A DNA stretch of 37,351 nt from a virus. A program made the position numbers and the translations under genes. Below the pieces are notes generated by a model, which was not told the origin of the DNA, made no database searches, and saw nothing but the letters and a program-made list of their open reading frames with translations. Location: positions 1-37,351 of IMG/VR virus record IMGVR_UViG_3300048921_000575, one strand, 5' to 3'. Positions 265 to 11,558 of the stretch are shown in pieces. Positions within the stretch are counted from its first letter, which is position 1. Each line of letters opens with the position of its first letter.

Positions 265-1419
265 ATGGCAAGACCCACAAACCGACTGAGCGCCCGCGCC
301 GTCCAGACCACGGCCAAGCAAGGCTACCACGCCGATGGCGCCGGCCTTTATCTCCTAGTTGGCCCGACCGGTGCGAAGTCTTGGGTACTGCGGTATCAAC
401 GGGGCGGCAGGCGGCGGGAGATGGGCCTGGGCTCTGCGGCCGTGGTGACCTTGCAGGAGGCACGAGCATCTGCCCTGAGCCAGCGCAAAATCCTGGTCAC
501 CGGTGAAGATCCGATATCGGCACGCCGGGTCGCCCGATCCGCCGGCGCTTCTTTCGGAGAGGCTGCGGATGCTTATATTACCTCCCACCAGACAGCCTGG
601 AAGAACGATGCGCAGGCGGATCAGTGGGCGCAATCTCTACGCGACTACGGCCCGGCTCGGTCCACGCCCGTAGCGGAGGTGGATACTCACCTGGTGATGG
701 CATGCCTCAGGCCGATATGGGAAGCGAAAACCGTGACAGCAACACGCGTACGGGGGCGCATTGAGCGGGTGCTCGACTGGGCCAAGGTGCACGGAATGCG
801 GGAGGGCGAGAATCCGGCCCGGTGGCGCGGCCACTTGGAGAATCTGCTCCCCAAACCCAGCAAAGTCAGCAAAACTCAGCACCACGCAGCAATGCCCTAT
901 GCAGATGCCTCAGCCTTCATGGCCGTCCTATCCCAGCGAGATGCCCGATCGCGGCGAGCGCTGCGCTTCACGATCCTCACGGCGGCGCGAACTGAAGAAG
1001 TTACCGGCGCTCAGTGGGCTGAGTTTGATCTGGCGCGGAAGCTCTGGACCATTCCTGCAATGCGAATGAAGGGCGGACGGGAACACGCTGTTCCCCTAAC
1101 CGATGCGGCCATCAGCATTCTGGCTCCCCTGCCACGCACCGAACCACCGTTCGCACTTTCTGAGAACGCAATGCTTTACTTGCTGCAGAAGACGCCTCCA
1201 AAAGGGCTGGGGCTCCCGTTTACCGTTCATGGGTTCCGATCTAGCTTTCGCGACTGGGCGGCTGAGACGACCGATTTCCCTCATGAAGTTGTAGAGATGG
1301 CGCTAGCTCATGCAATTCGAAATAAAGCCGAAGCAGCGTATCGCCGCGGTCAGCTCCTCGAAAAACGCGCCCTACTAATGGACGCATGGGCCGAATATTT
1401 ACTAGGACCAAAACATTGA
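265..1419 (+). CDS. int: Tyrosine-type site-specific integrase (P4 family)
   Basis: This 384-aa recombinase would integrate and excise the prophage. Residues 1-90 are a DUF4102-like arm-binding domain (GYHADGAGLYLLV, KSWVLRYQRGGRRREMGLG). Residues 95-190 are the core-binding domain. The catalytic domain shows R242 (AARTEE), probable K269 (RMKGGREHAVPL), H322-x-x-R325 (HGFR), H349 (LAHAIRNK) and nucleophile Y359 (AAYRRG), so the active site looks complete. Length is normal for the family. The ATG at 265 follows two ATGGGGCAAA repeats and has no strong ribosome-binding site. The gene faces into the prophage, away from the tRNA-like fragment. No recombination directionality factor was recognised nearby. 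Confidence 0.95.
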   Translation: MARPTNRLSARAVQTTAKQGYHADGAGLYLLVGPTGAKSWVLRYQRGGRRREMGLGSAAVVTLQEARASALSQRKILVTGEDPISARRVARSAGASFGEAADAYITSHQTAWKNDAQADQWAQSLRDYGPARSTPVAEVDTHLVMACLRPIWEAKTVTATRVRGRIERVLDWAKVHGMREGENPARWRGHLENLLPKPSKVSKTQHHAAMPYADASAFMAVLSQRDARSRRALRFTILTAARTEEVTGAQWAEFDLARKLWTIPAMRMKGGREHAVPLTDAAISILAPLPRTEPPFALSENAMLYLLQKTPPKGLGLPFTVHGFRSSFRDWAAETTDFPHEVVEMALAHAIRNKAEAAYRRGQLLEKRALLMDAWAEYLLGPKH

Positions 1420-3169: not shown

Positions 3170-3838
3170 ATGTGCGGCCGATTCGTCCAAACCCCGATCC
3201 GAGATGCCGCCAGCCTGGGCTTCCCCCGGCTGGTGGGCGACCTACTGTCCATGCCGGCCAGCTACAACCTGGCGCCCACCCAGCGCGCTGCCGTGGTCCT
3301 GGACCGTGGCGAAGGCCTCCAGCTGCAGCGGCTGGCCTGGGGGCTCCTGCCCTTCTGGGCGAAGGCGAAGAAGCTGCAGGGGGCGACCATCAATGCCCGC
3401 ATCGAGACGGTGGCCACCAAACCTGCGTTCCGTTCGGCGTTCAAGAAGCACCGGTGCCTGATCCCTATGGCCGGGTACTACGAATGGTCGGTCAATGCCG
3501 AGGACGGGAAGAAGGATCCGTGGTTCATCCACGCGGCCGGGCCACTCTGGGCGGCCGGCCTGTGGGAAGACACCAACCCCCTACTCGACCCGGACAACCT
3601 GGGCACCTTCACCGTGATCACCGGCGACAGCAGCGGCGTGTCGGCCGACATCCACGACCGCATGCCGGTGTGGCTGGAACCGGGCCAGGCTGAAGAATGG
3701 ATTGCCGCATCGCCCGACGATGCCATGGCGATGCTGCTGGCCAGTGGCCCACCGGCGATGGAGGCTTATCGCGTCAGCCGTGCAGTCAACAGCCCGAGAT
3801 CAAACCACGAGAGCCTGCTACAGCCCGTGCCGCATTGA
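3170..3838 (+). CDS. yedK: SOS response-associated peptidase family protein (SRAP, YedK/HMCES)
   Basis: SRAP proteins form a covalent thiazolidine link with abasic sites in single-stranded DNA and protect them. All key residues are in the expected places in this 222-aa protein: Cys2 directly after the initiator Met (MCGRF), Asn75 (INARIET), Glu105 (AGYYEW) and His162 (DIHDRMPV). The YNLAPTQ motif near residue 32 is also typical. A GAGG eight bases before the ATG supports the start. It is divergent from 2681-3073, with a palindrome between them. SRAP genes are normally chromosomal SOS genes; as phage cargo it could protect replicating DNA or help overcome DNA-damaging host defences, which is inference. 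Confidence 0.95.
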   Translation: MCGRFVQTPIRDAASLGFPRLVGDLLSMPASYNLAPTQRAAVVLDRGEGLQLQRLAWGLLPFWAKAKKLQGATINARIETVATKPAFRSAFKKHRCLIPMAGYYEWSVNAEDGKKDPWFIHAAGPLWAAGLWEDTNPLLDPDNLGTFTVITGDSSGVSADIHDRMPVWLEPGQAEEWIAASPDDAMAMLLASGPPAMEAYRVSRAVNSPRSNHESLLQPVPH

Positions 3839-4565: not shown

Positions 4566-4799
4566 TCAAATCTGCAGTTCCAGCAAGGGGAGATTCGGCG
4601 CTATCTCTAAAACTCTTCCAGCCCGCACCCACACGTTATATGGAATATTGCCCCCCAGCACGCCAATGGCCCGCATCTGCGCCCCATCGTAGGTGGTCAG
4701 GCTGCTCGTGCCGTCCGCGTTATGGGCGGTGACCGTCGCCAGCAGCCGAGGGCTGGCGCTGACCAGCCCGGCGAATTCGTCCCACAGTTCAGTCCGCAT
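4566..4799 (-). CDS. Small protein at the end of the tail operon
   Basis: This 77-aa protein starts MRTELWDEFAGLVSASPRLL and contains alternating polar and hydrophobic stretches suggestive of a small beta domain (ATVTAHNADGTSSLTTYDG, VWVRAGRVLEIAPNLPLLE). The start overlaps the upstream tail-hub gene by 11 bp, so the two are probably coupled and the product is likely a virion or tail-assembly component. I do not recognise a named family. Confidence 0.65.
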   Translation of the reverse strand: MRTELWDEFAGLVSASPRLLATVTAHNADGTSSLTTYDGAQMRAIGVLGGNIPYNVWVRAGRVLEIAPNLPLLELQI

Positions 4800-6609
4800 C
4801 GGTGTAGTGCCTTTCTAGGGTGATGGTTTGCTCGATCACGGCTGCCTTGTCGCTGATCCGGGCCTCGGTCCTGACCGCGGTGCACAAGCCGTGCCAGGTG
4901 CCGGCCTCGCCCACGACCTCCACCAGGTCCAGCGGCAGGACCCGCCCGACCTCGCCCGGCCGCAGCGGGCCGGCGAACAGGGGCAGCACCAGGTCGATCG
5001 CCGCTTGCTCGCCGCGATCGGCCAGGATGTTCCGGCCGCGCTCGGCCGCCACGGCGCTGGTGTTGATCAGCGGGCTGCTCACCTGCTGAGCGAACAGTTG
5101 GCCCGCCTCGCCGGCGCGGCGCACCTTGCAGGTCACGCCCTTCCCTGCCAGCTCACCGGTGACCACCACGGCGTCATATAGGGGCGCGCTGCGCACCTGC
5201 AGGCTTTCGTTGGACACGATGTCCTCTTGCACCACGTGGTCAGGGGTCCGGTCGCGCCAATCCCATGGGCTGTGCGGATACCTCGCTCGCACGCGCAGGC
5301 TGGCGTCGGCGGGGTGGGACTGCACCACGCCCCCGCTCGCCTCGGCAAGCCGGCTGATGGCGTCCAGCGCCGGCGTGGCGTCGTAGAACCATGCGCCTGC
5401 TGGCACCAGCCAATCCACGGTGTCGTAGCTGGAGGAGAACCCGGTATCGGCCAGCTCCTCTGCCACCAGCTGCGCCGCGCTGCGCTCCTCGGTGGTGGTC
5501 TTCACCCTGCCCGGAGCATACGGGGCGGCCAGCAACGCAGTGCGCGATCGCCCGGTCAACGTGACGCCGGCACGGCTCCACTCTCGGCGCTGGCCGTAGC
5601 CTTCCACGATAGCCGTCCACACGTACCCGTTGAGGGTGATCTCCACGAGTCGCGGCCCGGCTGCTGTCGGTTTGAGCAGGGCGAGGTGGTTCGTGTCGGC
5701 CAGTTCGAGGTCGTAGCTGCTGCCCCACGCGTCGACACTGGACGAGATCGAGACGCTTTCGATCTGGATGGGCAGCCGGTCGGGCAGCCTAACCACGGAA
5801 ATACTGTTGATCACGACATAGGTCCTTCGTTGTGGGCGCACCATGTAGCAGGCGGAAACGCCTAAGTTCAGTGGGGCCAGGCCGCTGCCCAGCATCACCG
5901 GGCAGCCAAGATTGAGGCCGACATAGTTCCCAGCCGGCCAGATGGGTTCGGGATCTGGGTCAGGGTCGGGGTTCGCGCCAGGCGGAACTACACGCCAAGG
6001 GACAGCCTTGGCCGGCCCCCACGGCAGCCTGGCGGCCCGCCGAGACAGCCCCGGGTGCAGCCACCCCCACCGCATGGAGGCGCCGGCGCGCGCCGGGCTG
6101 CCGCGCCACTGCAGGGACGCCCCGCCATCCGCCCGCGGTGCCGCGTACCAAGGCAGAGCGCCTGCGGCGCGCTGAACCCTCATGAAGCCTTGCCAGTCCA
6201 GCGAGATCGCGGACCGCTCCCTGCCCTGCATGGACCAGGGGAGAACGGCAGCAGCCAACACCTGCGGCGAGCTGGCCTGCCAACGCAATGACAGCGCACG
6301 CCCGAGCAGCTCAGAAATACCCCAGGCCACCGAGTGGCCCGCCCCGATCTTTTCAGCGACGCCCCAGTCCATCACTCCCTGGGCAGTGATCGAGTCTGCC
6401 CTTCCCCATGTCGCAGATGAGACCTTTCGGACTTTCCCGGCGGCGCCACGCCACCGCATCAAAGAGGTGGAATGAAGAGCCCTGAGGACTGGCTCAGGCC
6501 CGGGACCATCGTTCCAGTCCGTGCCAAGGTCAAGAGACAAGAAGCCGCCCAACCCGGCGTGCAGCGGCCCCAAATTGAGCTGTGCGTAACGCCCGTCAAA
6601 GTCACGCAT
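4789..6609 (-). CDS. Tail hub / baseplate protein with an N-terminal Trp-repeat region
   Basis: This 606-aa tail protein has two parts. Residues 1-255 hold an unusual repeat region: 11 Trp residues (W53, 68, 82, 96, 110, 125, 139, 154, 168, 181, 197) spaced almost exactly 14-15 apart, flanked by two related LNLG segments (about 10-30 and 231-251) and a DPDPDPEP linker. Residues 262-606 look like the gp27/gpD tail-hub fold (RLPDRLPIQIESVSISSSVD, YDLELADTNHLALL, GLCTAVRTEARISDKAA, ITLERHY). That assignment is by general pattern, not a decisive motif. Such hubs sit at the tail tip and connect tube to adsorption apparatus. The gene starts 6 bp after the previous tail gene and overlaps the next. 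Confidence 0.65.
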   Translation of the reverse strand: MRDFDGRYAQLNLGPLHAGLGGFLSLDLGTDWNDGPGPEPVLRALHSTSLMRWRGAAGKVRKVSSATWGRADSITAQGVMDWGVAEKIGAGHSVAWGISELLGRALSLRWQASSPQVLAAAVLPWSMQGRERSAISLDWQGFMRVQRAAGALPWYAAPRADGGASLQWRGSPARAGASMRWGWLHPGLSRRAARLPWGPAKAVPWRVVPPGANPDPDPDPEPIWPAGNYVGLNLGCPVMLGSGLAPLNLGVSACYMVRPQRRTYVVINSISVVRLPDRLPIQIESVSISSSVDAWGSSYDLELADTNHLALLKPTAAGPRLVEITLNGYVWTAIVEGYGQRREWSRAGVTLTGRSRTALLAAPYAPGRVKTTTEERSAAQLVAEELADTGFSSSYDTVDWLVPAGAWFYDATPALDAISRLAEASGGVVQSHPADASLRVRARYPHSPWDWRDRTPDHVVQEDIVSNESLQVRSAPLYDAVVVTGELAGKGVTCKVRRAGEAGQLFAQQVSSPLINTSAVAAERGRNILADRGEQAAIDLVLPLFAGPLRPGEVGRVLPLDLVEVVGEAGTWHGLCTAVRTEARISDKAAVIEQTITLERHYTDAD

Positions 6610-6615
6610 CTGCGG

Positions 6616-6945
6616 TTAGCCCTCGATAGCCGGCAGCACCCAGTCCTGGACGGCAGCGTTCTGCAGGCCGCGGTCATCGATGCCAAGAACCATGTACCGC
6701 ATCGAAGGGTTCAGACCTCGAACACGCCAGATACCCGCCGGCGTGGATCGAGCCATCGCCACGACAATCATGGAAGTGCGCTCCAGCACCACGATTCGGC
6801 CGACGCTAGGCTGATTGAGGATCTTGAACCGGCCATCTGGGGCGTCAGGGTCTGATCCGACAGGGGCGTCGCCTGCAAGATAGCCCTTCCCCGCCCAGCG
6901 GTACGCCATCGAGACACGGGTGAGCCCGACATTCGTGCCCTTCAT
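6616..6945 (-). CDS. Hypothetical tail-tip protein
   Basis: This 109-aa protein (MKGTNVGLTRVSMAYRWAGK) is not assigned to a named family. It is beta-rich with Gly/Asp turns (DAPDGRFKILNQPSVGRIVV, GIWRVRGLNPSMRYMVLG), suggesting a small sandwich domain. The ATG at 6945 overlaps the preceding stop as ATGA, which supports this start over an in-frame GTG at 6951. Its place inside the tail operon implies a virion role. Confidence 0.7.
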   Translation of the reverse strand: MKGTNVGLTRVSMAYRWAGKGYLAGDAPVGSDPDAPDGRFKILNQPSVGRIVVLERTSMIVVAMARSTPAGIWRVRGLNPSMRYMVLGIDDRGLQNAAVQDWVLPAIEG

Positions 6946-7955
6946 GGCCACCAGCTCCCGCCCGCCATTAACAAGACTTGGCCGAACTGCTGCTCGGTGG
7001 CGACTCCTGACCAGACCTCGGCCACGAACGTCACAGGGAGCATCATGGAATGACCCTCGATCTCGGGTGGGGGCACCTGTGCGACGCGGTCAGGGAAAGG
7101 TTTGTTGTGCCGTGGTACGAGAAGGCCAGGCAGCTCCCCGCGCGGCATGCCAACTGCCTCGTAGATGAACGTCGAGCTGTACACAAGCCCCTGTGTAATG
7201 GGATGGGGATAGGTAACGCTGTCCGCACCAGGCCCGCCCCAGGAGGCGAAGCTGGAAAACCTGTTGCCGCCGACCAGGTGCGCCAAGGCAGCGGACGTTG
7301 GACTACTCTGGGAATCCGGGAGATACACGGCTGCGCGGGCTTGGTCGATCGTCATCGCGGTGTTGGACGTTGAGAAGACGTATCCGTCCAAATCGCCGCC
7401 GCCATTGAACGAAGCCAGCCCGTTGCGACTGATGCACCAGCACTTCATGTCGCCAGGCTTGAAGGAAATGAAATCACCAAAAAAGTACGGAAGCCGACCA
7501 TTGGCCGGCGCCGCCACCCACGGATTAACGAACAAGTAGAAGAAGCGCGAATCAGCCACAATCAACCAGGATGCGGACACGCCCGACAGAGCTGAGGACT
7601 TGGAAACGGGCACGCCGGAAGCCGCTTGGGCAACTGTTGGCGCAGGGTTTGAGCCGGTGTCGAGACCCGTCAGGCTTCCGAATCCCCGGACAAGGGCTTG
7701 GCGTGCATCCCCCACCGCTCCCGTGTCATCGACTTGCAGGTAGAAACCGGAACCAGCCACAGGATCATTGCGATACGCTCGCTTGTTGCTTGCAGTAAAC
7801 GCCTTGGTCCAGCCAGCGCCTGCCTTGGCGCTGGCACCGGTACCGTAGCCGTCGACCAGAACGGCATCAAGCAGAGCGACCAGGCTGCCAACCGTTCCGC
7901 TCAGCTGCGGCGCTCCCGGATCCGAACTTGAATAAACACTCGCAAATGCACTCAT
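6942..7955 (-). CDS. Putative tail fibre or tail-tip protein
   Basis: This 337-aa protein starts MSAFASVYSSSDPGAPQLSG. The Gly/Ser/Ala-rich beta character (FYLQVDDTGAVGDARQALVRG, SRFFYLFVNPWVAAPANGRL) and the segment KCWCISRNGLASFNGGGDLD fit an exposed tail or receptor-facing protein. It starts 4 bp after the stop of the large 1199-aa tail protein and ends with an ATGA overlap. Its position downstream of the tape measure supports a tail-tip role. No catalytic motif was seen. Confidence 0.65.
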   Translation of the reverse strand: MSAFASVYSSSDPGAPQLSGTVGSLVALLDAVLVDGYGTGASAKAGAGWTKAFTASNKRAYRNDPVAGSGFYLQVDDTGAVGDARQALVRGFGSLTGLDTGSNPAPTVAQAASGVPVSKSSALSGVSASWLIVADSRFFYLFVNPWVAAPANGRLPYFFGDFISFKPGDMKCWCISRNGLASFNGGGDLDGYVFSTSNTAMTIDQARAAVYLPDSQSSPTSAALAHLVGGNRFSSFASWGGPGADSVTYPHPITQGLVYSSTFIYEAVGMPRGELPGLLVPRHNKPFPDRVAQVPPPEIEGHSMMLPVTFVAEVWSGVATEQQFGQVLLMAGGSWWP

Positions 7956-7958
7956 GAA

Positions 7959-10900
7959 TCAGGCTCCTGCAATGTTGCCGATGACTTGGAAGCGGGTCGA
8001 ATCCGTGATGCCCTGCGGCGTGCCCGGCAGTGTGGTTCGCACCATCCAGACAGGGGCCAAGCCACCAATCGTGTTGAGGCGCACAACGTTGTTCACTGAC
8101 CAACCGGTGCCCCACCCTTCGCGGCGCATGGTGAAGTACGGCTTCGCTGTGCGCGGGTTCACCGGCGCCAAATCCGCGGTGGTGTTCCCGTTGGCAATGA
8201 TGCCGACCGTTTCACCGATCACCTCAAACTGCGTCGCGCTAGTGAAGCGGATGGCCCAGCGTTCCGTAATGGCATCAGCGTTTGTCACCAGCAAGGGGTA
8301 GTCGGTGTCGTTGTAGGAGGCAGCCGCTTGGCTGCCGCTGAGCTCGTCGCTCCACACGTTGCCCCACGCGGCTTGGTCAAACAGGTTCTGGACTCGCGCC
8401 TGGAGGTCCAATGAGCCGTTGGCCTCACCAAGACGCAGGGCAGTGCTGATCAACGCCTCGCCTGCCGGGAAGTCGTGGGTAAGCCCGGTGTTCACCTCAA
8501 TCTCGCCGGTGATCTGCGGCTGCACGACCAGGCGGCGGTCTTCGACACGCTCACGAATGACGATAGGCAACGTGTAGGCCGAGAGGTTGAGGGGGTTGCT
8601 AAACGTCAGCGAGCCCGCATCCATGTCCGACGTGTACCACGCGCTGTTGACCGGCACCCCAGCGGCGTCGCGCACCTCAACGGATGCTTGGCGGCCCCGT
8701 CCAAAGGCAACGACCTGATCAGCGGCAGGCGATGCAACCGAATGGGTGGCGGTGTGGTGGATCAGCACAGTCTGACCAGGCTTGAACGCCGGCACCCGAC
8801 CATCGCTCGGCAGTCGCACTGATTCAAGCCCGATTACCACGGCGGAAAGCGGAATGGACCTGTACACGACCGCACCGATGTAGACCGAGCCAGGAAGTGC
8901 AAGCGTCGGCATCCACACCTGGCCGCCGACCACCTCGGCCGGATCGAACCAAGGCTCCCCCTCACTGCCGGCCGCCGGCACCATGCGGCCGAACTGGACC
9001 TTGGCCACACCCGAGTCCCAATCAATGGTGCCGCGAACCATAGAACCAGCAATGACGCCGTTGATGTCGGCCGCGGCAGTCAGAAGCACGCCATCCAGCG
9101 TTGTCGCTCGCAGGGTGAAGTTCCCGGGGCGAAGCGGCGAACCCGGGGTGCGGAAGAACACCGCTGCGACACCGGGATCTGCAATACGCGTCAGGAGCGA
9201 TTGAACCTGAACCGTGTTGGCGCCACCAGCAACCCACTGCGCCAGGTTCACGACGCCGCCGGCGTAGTCGATCGAACCGGCGTAGACACCGGCACCCGAG
9301 ATCGGATCGACTGAATGGTAGAGGCCGCCATTGCGATCAACGTAGGTGCGGCCCTTGAACATGAAACGCACGCTGCCAGGAACAATGCTGTCGCTGATGG
9401 TGGGGGTGAGCAGCAGCTGCACCGGAGGAAGCGGCAGGGATTCTTCGGACGTTGTCTCCGCCGATCCTGCGATCATCCAGCCCATCGAGATCATCGTCCC
9501 GGCCGAGAACTGGGCCTCGACGTCCTTTCGGTAGTACCCGGTCACCTTCCATCGCTGGTTGTTGCCAAGTTCCCGGATTGGGATGGAAACCTCGTGCACG
9601 CTGAACCGCCCAGCCTGCAGGTTGACTGCGCCGGTGCTGTAATTGATGGACCCGGCCAGAGCGCCCGACGCCAGCCCCCCGACAGACACGATCACCAGAT
9701 TGCCAGCGCCGTCATCCTTGGCGATGACCCGCATGATCTGGGGCGTCGCCGGCATGCCATCCTCGCCAGCCGATACCGAAATTGTCCAGTCAAGCTGGAG
9801 ACTTCCTGCGCGTACGGGGCCGTTGGGCACGGCGAAGGCGACGCCACCGGATCCATCCGGTACCGGCTGGACCGTGGCCGCCAGGGCCTGGCCGTACTCG
9901 TAGGCACATGCCAGCTGGCTATTGGCATCCGGCAAGGTCACCGGCCGAATCATTACCTCACCGGTGGCATAGGCGATCGAACCAAGAGTAACGCCACCGA
10001 TAAGCAGACCACCGGCCCCGTCATCCGACACGGGCACCGAGTTGCCATCGATGCGCAGCGTGAACGACGCAGTGCCAGGCACAACGCCTCCATGCCCCAG
10101 CATGAAGTGCAGCGCGGGGGGCGCAATGGCTACGTCACCCGTGCGCGCCTCAGCCAGTACAGGCGTTCCCCAGCCAATCAGCACGCTGCTGTCAAGGTCC
10201 GGCAGCGCCCCGGCGGTGAGCACCACGGAGCCGGTGGCATAGTTCACCGAGCCACTTCCCTGCCCCGGCTTGCCGATCAACTGCCCCAAGCCGTTGTCAC
10301 TGAGGCGGACCCACTTGCCGAGTGCCCGGTAGTCAACGACCACTGTACCAGCGGCCGGCAGTGGATCAATCTGGAACAGCCAGTTGTAGCCTTGGTTGTT
10401 CTGGGTCACCTTGATCTCATCGGTGAACCCCTGCTGCACGATGGCGCCGGCGGGGGTGGCGGTGATGCTCACGCTCGTGGTCCCCGCGCCATTGGCGTTG
10501 GCAAGACTCACCGATCCCGACAGGTAATCGACCGTCCCTGACCACGGCGAGGCGGTCGCAGACGCCAGCTCCCCGCTTCCGTTATCGGTCAGCTCGATGC
10601 TGCCGACCAAAAGCTTCAGCGACCCCACCGCAAACGGGTTGCCCAGGAATCGCACGACGGGCACGCCCGCGGCGAAAGCACTGGAGTACGCCAACGCCAA
10701 GGAGCCGGCCGGCCCCGAAGGCACATAGCTGATCGTCCCCAAGCCAGCCAGCACATCGCTCACCGCCGTTTCGGCGGTCGAGGTGGGCACGATGTTTACA
10801 TAAGGGGTGTCCACGATAACTGACAGGTCACCGGGCTTTCCGTCGGAGACGAGCCGCTTCACGCTGTGGTAGCTGGTCGCGTCCACCACGTTGGTTTCAT

Positions 10901-11558
10901 AGATTCGGGTGGGTGGTTTGGTGCTGGTGTAGCGAATAGCCTCCTGCCCGAAGAAGTCGTAGGCAAGCGCGTTCACCGTTTCGATCACCAGCACGTCTCG
11001 CTCGAAGGCGCCGTCCGCATCGTAGAAAGTGCGCGTGGTGCGCGAGAGGATTCCCTTGACCCGGATGTACTGCTCGTTGGGCGGATACCCCCCTCCGCTG
11101 GTAGTCAGGCAGAGGTTGTCGTTGATGTCGGGGCTGGGCGCGTCTTTCATGCAGTAGAACTGCAGCGCCATCTGACCGATGAAGTGGTTGCTGAGCAGGA
11201 TGTAGCGGGACTCTACGCCGCGAGTGATATAGCTCTCGACTCGATTCTTCGCGTCCAGCCGCACATCGCTATACGAGCCCGTGGCGAACATGGTGACGGT
11301 CACGCGCGGATCGACCGGCGGATCCAGCAGCACGCCGATGGCGTCCTTGAGCACGTCCGTGCCAGGGGTATCCACGTGCACGAACATCTTGCGCAGCGTC
11401 GCGCGACCAGTGGTGCGCTCCTCATCGCCGATGTCGGGGAACAGGTTGTTCATCTGCCCGTCCACGATCTCGGCCTGAACCATGCGGCCACCGCCGTCAG
11501 GGTTGTCGGTGAGCCGCTGGGACTGGCGCATTTTGATGTCAGTTGCGGAAATGGGCAT
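7959..11558 (-). CDS. Large tail protein with tandem beta modules
   Basis: This 1199-aa protein is the second-longest in the window. Residues 1-270 look like a conserved globular domain (TDIKMRQSQRLTDNPDGGG, VDPRVTVTMFATGSYSDVRL). Residues 310-860 hold six degenerate copies of a module of about 80-125 residues, each ending in G-[ST]-[IV]-x-[YW]-x-x-G-x-[VA]: 341-352, 436-447, 526-537, 636-647, 761-772 and 843-854. Most are preceded by a D-[DN]-G-x-G turn. Residues 860-1199 form a further region. The modules look like repeated beta sandwiches, as in tail-tip or fibre proteins. I do not recognise a lambda gpJ-type central protein here; this gene may fill that place. Confidence 0.65.
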   Translation of the reverse strand: MPISATDIKMRQSQRLTDNPDGGGRMVQAEIVDGQMNNLFPDIGDEERTTGRATLRKMFVHVDTPGTDVLKDAIGVLLDPPVDPRVTVTMFATGSYSDVRLDAKNRVESYITRGVESRYILLSNHFIGQMALQFYCMKDAPSPDINDNLCLTTSGGGYPPNEQYIRVKGILSRTTRTFYDADGAFERDVLVIETVNALAYDFFGQEAIRYTSTKPPTRIYETNVVDATSYHSVKRLVSDGKPGDLSVIVDTPYVNIVPTSTAETAVSDVLAGLGTISYVPSGPAGSLALAYSSAFAAGVPVVRFLGNPFAVGSLKLLVGSIELTDNGSGELASATASPWSGTVDYLSGSVSLANANGAGTTSVSITATPAGAIVQQGFTDEIKVTQNNQGYNWLFQIDPLPAAGTVVVDYRALGKWVRLSDNGLGQLIGKPGQGSGSVNYATGSVVLTAGALPDLDSSVLIGWGTPVLAEARTGDVAIAPPALHFMLGHGGVVPGTASFTLRIDGNSVPVSDDGAGGLLIGGVTLGSIAYATGEVMIRPVTLPDANSQLACAYEYGQALAATVQPVPDGSGGVAFAVPNGPVRAGSLQLDWTISVSAGEDGMPATPQIMRVIAKDDGAGNLVIVSVGGLASGALAGSINYSTGAVNLQAGRFSVHEVSIPIRELGNNQRWKVTGYYRKDVEAQFSAGTMISMGWMIAGSAETTSEESLPLPPVQLLLTPTISDSIVPGSVRFMFKGRTYVDRNGGLYHSVDPISGAGVYAGSIDYAGGVVNLAQWVAGGANTVQVQSLLTRIADPGVAAVFFRTPGSPLRPGNFTLRATTLDGVLLTAAADINGVIAGSMVRGTIDWDSGVAKVQFGRMVPAAGSEGEPWFDPAEVVGGQVWMPTLALPGSVYIGAVVYRSIPLSAVVIGLESVRLPSDGRVPAFKPGQTVLIHHTATHSVASPAADQVVAFGRGRQASVEVRDAAGVPVNSAWYTSDMDAGSLTFSNPLNLSAYTLPIVIRERVEDRRLVVQPQITGEIEVNTGLTHDFPAGEALISTALRLGEANGSLDLQARVQNLFDQAAWGNVWSDELSGSQAAASYNDTDYPLLVTNADAITERWAIRFTSATQFEVIGETVGIIANGNTTADLAPVNPRTAKPYFTMRREGWGTGWSVNNVVRLNTIGGLAPVWMVRTTLPGTPQGITDSTRFQVIGNIAGA

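What the first reader, a model, noticed from the sequence alone, without database searches (positions are those of the whole stretch)
5992..6456. Trp repeat with 14-15 residue period in a tail-hub protein
In the 606-aa hub protein, Trp occurs at residues 53, 68, 82, 96, 110, 125, 139, 154, 168, 181 and 197, with spacings 15, 14, 14, 14, 15, 14, 15, 14, 13 and 16. Each Trp ends a small hydrophobic pattern such as SLRW, ALPW, SLDW or SLQW. Outside Trp the copies are very divergent, so selection holds the spacing and not the sequence. This looks like an 11-rung solenoid or stacked beta hairpins, possibly a receptor-binding or tube-lining element. I know no named repeat of this form in phage hubs.
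Basis: seen in the sequence. Interest (0 to 1): 0.8.

Follow-up and report, generated by a model that had tools for sequence, protein, structure and literature searches.

The report
Trp-studded hypervariable arm on phage hub
The tail-tip hub protein of this temperate phage carries, in front of its ordinary hub fold, a stretch of eleven short strands that keep a tryptophan every 14-15 residues while nearly everything else has changed beyond recognition between close relatives; this looks like a rigid scaffold whose surface is free to vary, probably part of the module that meets the host cell.

Summary
The window protein (4789-6609, minus strand, 606 aa) has 11 Trp in register at residues 53, 68, 82, 96, 110, 125, 139, 154, 168, 183 (not 181) and 197, spaced 15,14,14,14,15,14,15,14,15,14, then Trp205. 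Some 60 homologues keep 11 positions with the same spacing. Trp columns have 0.13 bits of entropy, the other columns 2.6, the hub 0.87.

The C-terminal 340 residues are a gp27/Mu gp44-type hub. The array is an N-terminal addition not seen in the solved relatives. Repeats show strict beta-strand alternation ending at Trp. 15-residue units occur almost only at odd steps, which suggests two-strand hairpins of 28-29 residues rather than 11 solenoid rungs. AlphaFold2 is below 50 pLDDT there, so the fold is not established.

The array is hypervariable: a relative with 98% identical hub shares 33% of non-Trp array residues. It is replaced together with two upstream tail genes, between conserved flanks. 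Best reading: a Trp-anchored beta scaffold with a variable surface inside the host-contact module (inferred). Copy number is fixed at 11 in the close clade and differs in distant groups. No Pfam family covers it; PHROG 6079 does, as "tail protein".

The parts
4789..6609 (-). Tail hub gene, 606 aa (PHROG 6079 'tail protein')
   Evidence: E 5e-143 to phrog_6079; downstream of tape measure and 1199-aa tail genes
5995..6453 (-). Trp array, residues 53-205: 11 Trp in 14/15-residue register plus Trp205
6523..6579 (-). First pair of LNLG motifs (residues 11-14 and 26-29, 15 apart) before the array; related in pattern to YTPPxGDxVxF repeats in distant homologues
5932..5982 (-). Pro-Asp rich linker (residues 210-226) between array and second LNLG pair
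5860..5916 (-). Second pair of LNLG motifs (residues 232-235 and 247-250), followed by the hub core; invariant Cys236 lies here and Cys254 just after
4792..5823 (-). gp27/Mu gp44-like hub core, residues 263-606
   Evidence: pLDDT about 90; E to 1e-17, 3d37; Z 18-23
6616..6951 (-). Variable 111-aa ORF between g337 and hub; replaced together with the array
6942..7955 (-). Variable 337-aa tail protein (phrog_9600): conserved first 40 residues, variable remainder; probable adhesin
7959..11558 (-). Conserved 1199-aa tail protein (phrog_6128), upstream border of the variable module
4566..4799 (-). 77-aa ORF after the hub; a small ORF sits there in relatives too

Best explanation
The first 256 residues are a beta-rich arm added in front of a standard gp27-type tail hub. 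Shown: it has 11 repeats, each with a beta-type alternation of about nine residues that ends in Trp, followed by a turn of 5-6 residues; the repeats pair into 28-29-residue units; the array is exchanged or diversified as a whole between close relatives, together with the two upstream tail genes, while Trp register and copy number stay fixed. Inferred: the repeats form an antiparallel hairpin stack or meander with Trp and the -2 hydrophobic on one buried face, probably packed between the three hub subunits or against partner tail proteins. The other face and the loops are solvent-exposed and free to vary. The arm sits at the cell-facing tip and helps carry or form the host-contact surface with the 337-aa protein.
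For: Trp columns 0.13 bits against 2.62 for other columns of the array and 0.87 for the hub. Hub 98% identical but array 33% (L012), and about 25-31% at 85-93% hub identity. DNA identity falls from about 0.92 in the hub to about 0.43 in the array for L012. In close pairs dN/dS is mostly 0.2-0.5 in the array and 0.01-0.1 in the hub. Neighbours g337 (32-47% identical) and g111 (40-60%) vary with it, while g1199 (72-85% within the close clade) and the hub core do not. Beta alternation +2.14 against a shuffle mean of 0, sd 0.10; moment maximal at 180 degrees; 15-residue units 96 at odd and 3 at even steps in 37 diverse alleles. AlphaFold2 strands end at or near each Trp with a 28-29-residue period. 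The 28-residue W...Y/F units of L091 repeat the same pairing. g337 has a conserved N-terminus and variable remainder, as adhesins do.
Against: AlphaFold2 confidence in the array is below 50 in both runs, so no fold is established, and the two runs agree only on the 28-29 period. dN/dS below 1 gives no sign of positive selection on single residues; relaxed constraint plus recombination would also explain the divergence. No receptor, oligomeric state or position in the virion has been shown. Co-variation with g337 and g111 may be only linkage. The 37 alleles share ancestry, so the odd/even count is not a set of independent events.
Confidence: 0.5

Rival explanations
1. A trimeric fibre of the triple beta-spiral kind, in which each 14-15-residue repeat of three hub chains adds one turn to a shaft, Trp filling the core around the three-fold axis.
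For: Unit length near the 15 residues known for adenovirus-type shafts (established knowledge); the hub fold is normally a trimer; flanking LNLG motifs are 15 apart with Gly/Pro at the turn; alternating hydrophobics.
Against: No Pfam match for any of 30 alleles; odd/even asymmetry of unit length suggests a two-strand unit instead; AlphaFold2 gives no such fold, though it was run on monomers only.
Confidence: 0.2
2. Loosely constrained spacer: the array is a tolerant, fast-drifting linker that only needs Trp and a hydrophobic neighbour to fold, with no binding role.
For: dN/dS mostly 0.2-0.5, not above 1; low AlphaFold2 confidence; pairwise identity no higher than column composition predicts.
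Against: Fixed copy number and turn lengths; array DNA unalignable next to a hub with about 92% DNA identity needs replacement, not drift; the replacement takes in the adjacent tail genes.
Confidence: 0.2
3. The Trp are docking points: the array lies extended along another tail protein with matching sites, such as the tape measure or the 1199-aa protein.
For: Only Trp is kept, as in linear docking motifs; the array is strongly basic in this clade (+9 to +20 in 36 of 37 alleles) while g1199 (-30) and tape measure (-17) are acidic.
Against: The strand alternation over nine residues indicates folded strands; positive charge is lost in several distant groups (-5 to +10); no 11-fold repeat was seen in g1199 by eye.
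Confidence: 0.07
4. Membrane-inserting beta barrel with aromatic girdles that helps DNA across the outer membrane.
For: Nine-residue alternating strands with Trp at strand ends resemble outer-membrane barrel strands.
Against: The middle of the hydrophobic face is not lipid-like: position -6 is Arg in 26% and charged in 31% of units.
Confidence: 0.03

Closest known systems
gp27 / Mu gp44-type tail hub (3d37, 1wru, 9ki1, 8fqc)
   Same: Residues 263-606 have this fold (Z 18-23) and the gene lies after the tape measure gene as hubs do
   Different: Most solved relatives start the hub fold within their first 30 residues; this one has about 260 residues in front
PHROG 6079 'tail protein' (Stenotrophomonas phage S1 gp21 is the nearest named member)
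   Same: Covers the protein including the array (E 5e-143; array alone E 6e-10). S1 gp21 has the same 11-Trp chain
   Different: Nothing is recorded about the repeat; function is only 'tail protein'
JBD30 baseplate hub gp53 (PMC11445458)
   Same: Siphophage hub trimer; [quoted passage not shown]
   Different: No sequence match to any solved chain
Triple beta-spiral shafts (adenovirus fibre type)
   Same: Repeats of about 15 residues with alternating hydrophobics and Gly/Pro turns (from general knowledge)
   Different: No profile match; Trp anchor; two-step length pattern; not tested as a trimer
DGR-diversified receptor-binding proteins (e.g. tentaclins, PMC10743442)
   Same: Variable surface on a kept scaffold at the tail
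   Different: No reverse transcriptase in this record; the whole array differs, not selected codons

Membership tests
gp27/Mu gp44-type tail hub | Hub fold | tested here: met
   pLDDT about 90, Foldseek E to 1e-17, Z 18-23
gp27/Mu gp44-type tail hub | Position in tail gene order after tape measure | tested here: met
   major tail protein, tape measure, g138, g1199, g337, g111, hub
gp27/Mu gp44-type tail hub | Forms a trimer under the tail tube | not testable with these tools
   Only monomer prediction available
PHROG 6079 | Profile match over most of the protein | tested here: met
   residues 29-602, profile 48-604 of 605
Triple beta-spiral shaft | 15-residue repeat profile (Pfam fibre-shaft type) | tested here: inconclusive
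   no Pfam fibre match, but the repeat is too divergent for a profile to exclude the fold
Triple beta-spiral shaft | Three chains wrapped around one axis | not testable with these tools
   No multimer prediction
Beta-solenoid (one rung per repeat) | Parallel stacked strands, one coil per 14-15 residues | tested here: inconclusive
   Low-confidence models; the nine-residue strand plus 5-6-residue turn and the 28-29 period argue against it
Outer-membrane beta barrel | Lipid-facing residues hydrophobic through the strand | tested here: not met
   Arg 26%, charged 31% at -6
DGR variable region | Reverse transcriptase in the same genome | tested here: not met
   no PF00078 match in the record (controls rang); the record may be a fragment
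Receptor-binding module | Sequence replaced between close relatives next to conserved tail genes | tested here: met
Receptor-binding module | Binds a host receptor | not testable with these tools
   Needs an experiment

The most novel reading that the evidence does not exclude
The array is a dedicated variable-surface scaffold, in the way that leucine-rich repeats serve lamprey antigen receptors: a Trp lattice of fixed length holds a hairpin stack whose exposed residues are replaced wholesale, giving a hub protein its own host-range surface. That role is normally played by separate fibres or spikes.
Probability: 0.25. Interest if true: 0.8.

Novelty: new variant of a known kind. Interest (0 to 1): 0.6.

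Why it matters
A conserved tail hub with a hypervariable, Trp-anchored N-terminal arm would make the hub itself part of host recognition. The repeat appears to be a so far undescribed beta-repeat, spread over phages and prophages of several proteobacterial hosts, and it separates what the fold needs (Trp, one hydrophobic, turn length) from what may change. It would also explain why PHROG 6079 hubs align poorly at their N-termini.

Tried and rejected
Solved structures: no sequence relative of the hub or of the array (only hits with E near 1). Pfam: nothing for the array. AlphaFold2 on the full protein (65 rows) and on the array of L015 (38 rows): array below pLDDT 50 both times. The fold libraries matched only the hub, so the array is effectively untested there and its absence is no evidence of a new fold. 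DGR: no reverse transcriptase. Exchange of single hairpins between alleles: no pair below 40% identity has a 24-residue stretch at 75% or more, so arrays behave as whole units. Alpha-helix: the mean spacing is near four helical turns, but the hydrophobic moment is at 180 degrees, not 100, and Pro is common at -1 and +4. One hit outside hubs (L118) was a short weak match on a 106-aa frame with a long ORF on the other strand, taken as chance. Papers: nothing found on a Trp repeat in phage tails, in an open-access library only.

Full report
What was checked. The minus-strand ORF 4789-6609 encodes 606 residues. Homologues correct one detail: the conserved tenth Trp is 183, not 181. The spacing then reads 15,14,14,14,15,14,15,14,15,14, and Trp205 follows at +8.

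Homologues. Scans of viral and genome contigs and phage records gave about 100 distinct hub ORFs. In the clade that aligns end to end, essentially all complete members keep 11 positions with unit lengths of 14 or 15; a few have one Trp replaced. Stenotrophomonas phage S1 gp21 belongs here. Distant groups keep the 14/15 spacing with other copy numbers: Pseudomonas phages 6-8 (unit of the form WxxxPxKD), L106 nine, L090 about ten (WQEA type), L091 with alternating Trp and Tyr/Phe in 28-residue units, and Pseudoalteromonas phage HS6. Of eight bacterial-genome matches to the array profile, seven were next to a hub domain; in L122 array and hub are in two overlapping frames. The eighth, L118, was judged chance.

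What the protein is. AlphaFold2 folds residues 265-605 with high confidence. Foldseek and VIA-align place them with gp27/Mu gp44-type hubs. Most solved relatives begin this fold within their first 30 residues, so the roughly 260-residue N-terminal part is an addition. [quoted passage not shown] by inference the arm leaves near the cell-facing tip.

Anatomy of the arm. Two LNLG motifs 15 apart, 11 Trp units, Trp205, a Pro-Asp linker, two more LNLG motifs 15 apart, then the hub. LNLG motifs correspond in pattern to YTPPxGDxVxF repeats of distant homologues. Within a unit, positions -8, -4, -2 and 0 are the hydrophobic ones and odd positions are polar; the alternation score is 2.14 against a shuffle mean of 0 with sd 0.10, and the moment peaks at 180 degrees. 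This is a strand of about nine residues ending at Trp and a turn of 5-6. In 15-residue units the first hydrophobic moves from +6 to +7 after the previous Trp, so the extra residue is in the turn. 15-residue units sit at odd steps in 96 cases and at even steps in 3 (37 diverse alleles; shared descent means these are not independent events). Two alternating turns point to antiparallel strands with a 28-29-residue unit. AlphaFold2 shows the same period, but at pLDDT below 50, so the fold remains a hypothesis.

Evolution. Column entropy is 0.13 bits at Trp, 2.62 elsewhere in the array, 0.87 in the hub. L012 has a hub 98% identical to the window's but an array 33% identical outside Trp; at 85-93% hub identity the array is at 25-31%. 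At DNA level L012 falls from about 0.92 in the hub to about 0.43 in the array, which means replacement rather than drift. Where arrays are alignable, dN/dS is mostly 0.2-0.5 against 0.01-0.1 in the hub: weak constraint, no sign of positive selection. The variable segment also takes in g111 and g337, while g1199 and the hub core are conserved. Array and g337 can part: L074 has a different g337 with a similar array. g337 has a conserved N-terminus and variable remainder, typical of adhesins. In this clade the array is strongly basic (+9 to +20 in 36 of 37 alleles, +15 here), but not in several distant groups.

Judgement. The array is a Trp-anchored beta-repeat scaffold with a variable surface, within an exchangeable host-contact module at the tail tip. 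Shown: repeat, register, strand pattern, pairing, hypervariability, co-replacement. Inferred: antiparallel hairpin stack, burial of Trp, location at the tip, role in host contact. No curated Pfam domain matches; PHROG 6079 already groups these proteins without describing the repeat.

Noticed in passing
6942-7955 (-): 337-aa tail protein with a conserved first 40 residues and variable remainder across relatives; candidate adhesin of this phage group.
   Followed up: partly
6616-6951 (-): 111-aa ORF (weak match to phrog_27013) between g337 and hub; its replacement tracks that of the array most closely (Spearman 0.86 among pairs with hub identity above 0.9).
   Followed up: partly
7959-11558 (-): The 1199-aa tail protein has several repeats of the form DDGxGxL...GSxxYxTGxVxL (about six by eye).
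   Followed up: no
L091, L095, L096 N-termini: Hub proteins with an ITGLRG-type repeat in front of a Trp...Tyr/Phe repeat (28-residue units in L091); another N-terminal repeat class on the same hub.
   Followed up: no
L117 1339 onwards (+): Hub with YTPPPADAVVF repeats both before and between Trp units, suggesting that LNLG, YTPP and Trp units are variants of one 14-15-residue repeat.
   Followed up: no
3170-3838 (+) and 265-1419 (+): A SRAP (SOS-associated peptidase) gene and a tyrosine integrase near the tail genes; S1 also has a SRAP gene beside its tail genes.
   Followed up: no
residues 236 and 254 of the hub (window 5848-5904): Two Cys invariant in all 65 aligned homologues, flanking the last LNLG motif; a possible disulfide or metal site.
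   Followed up: no
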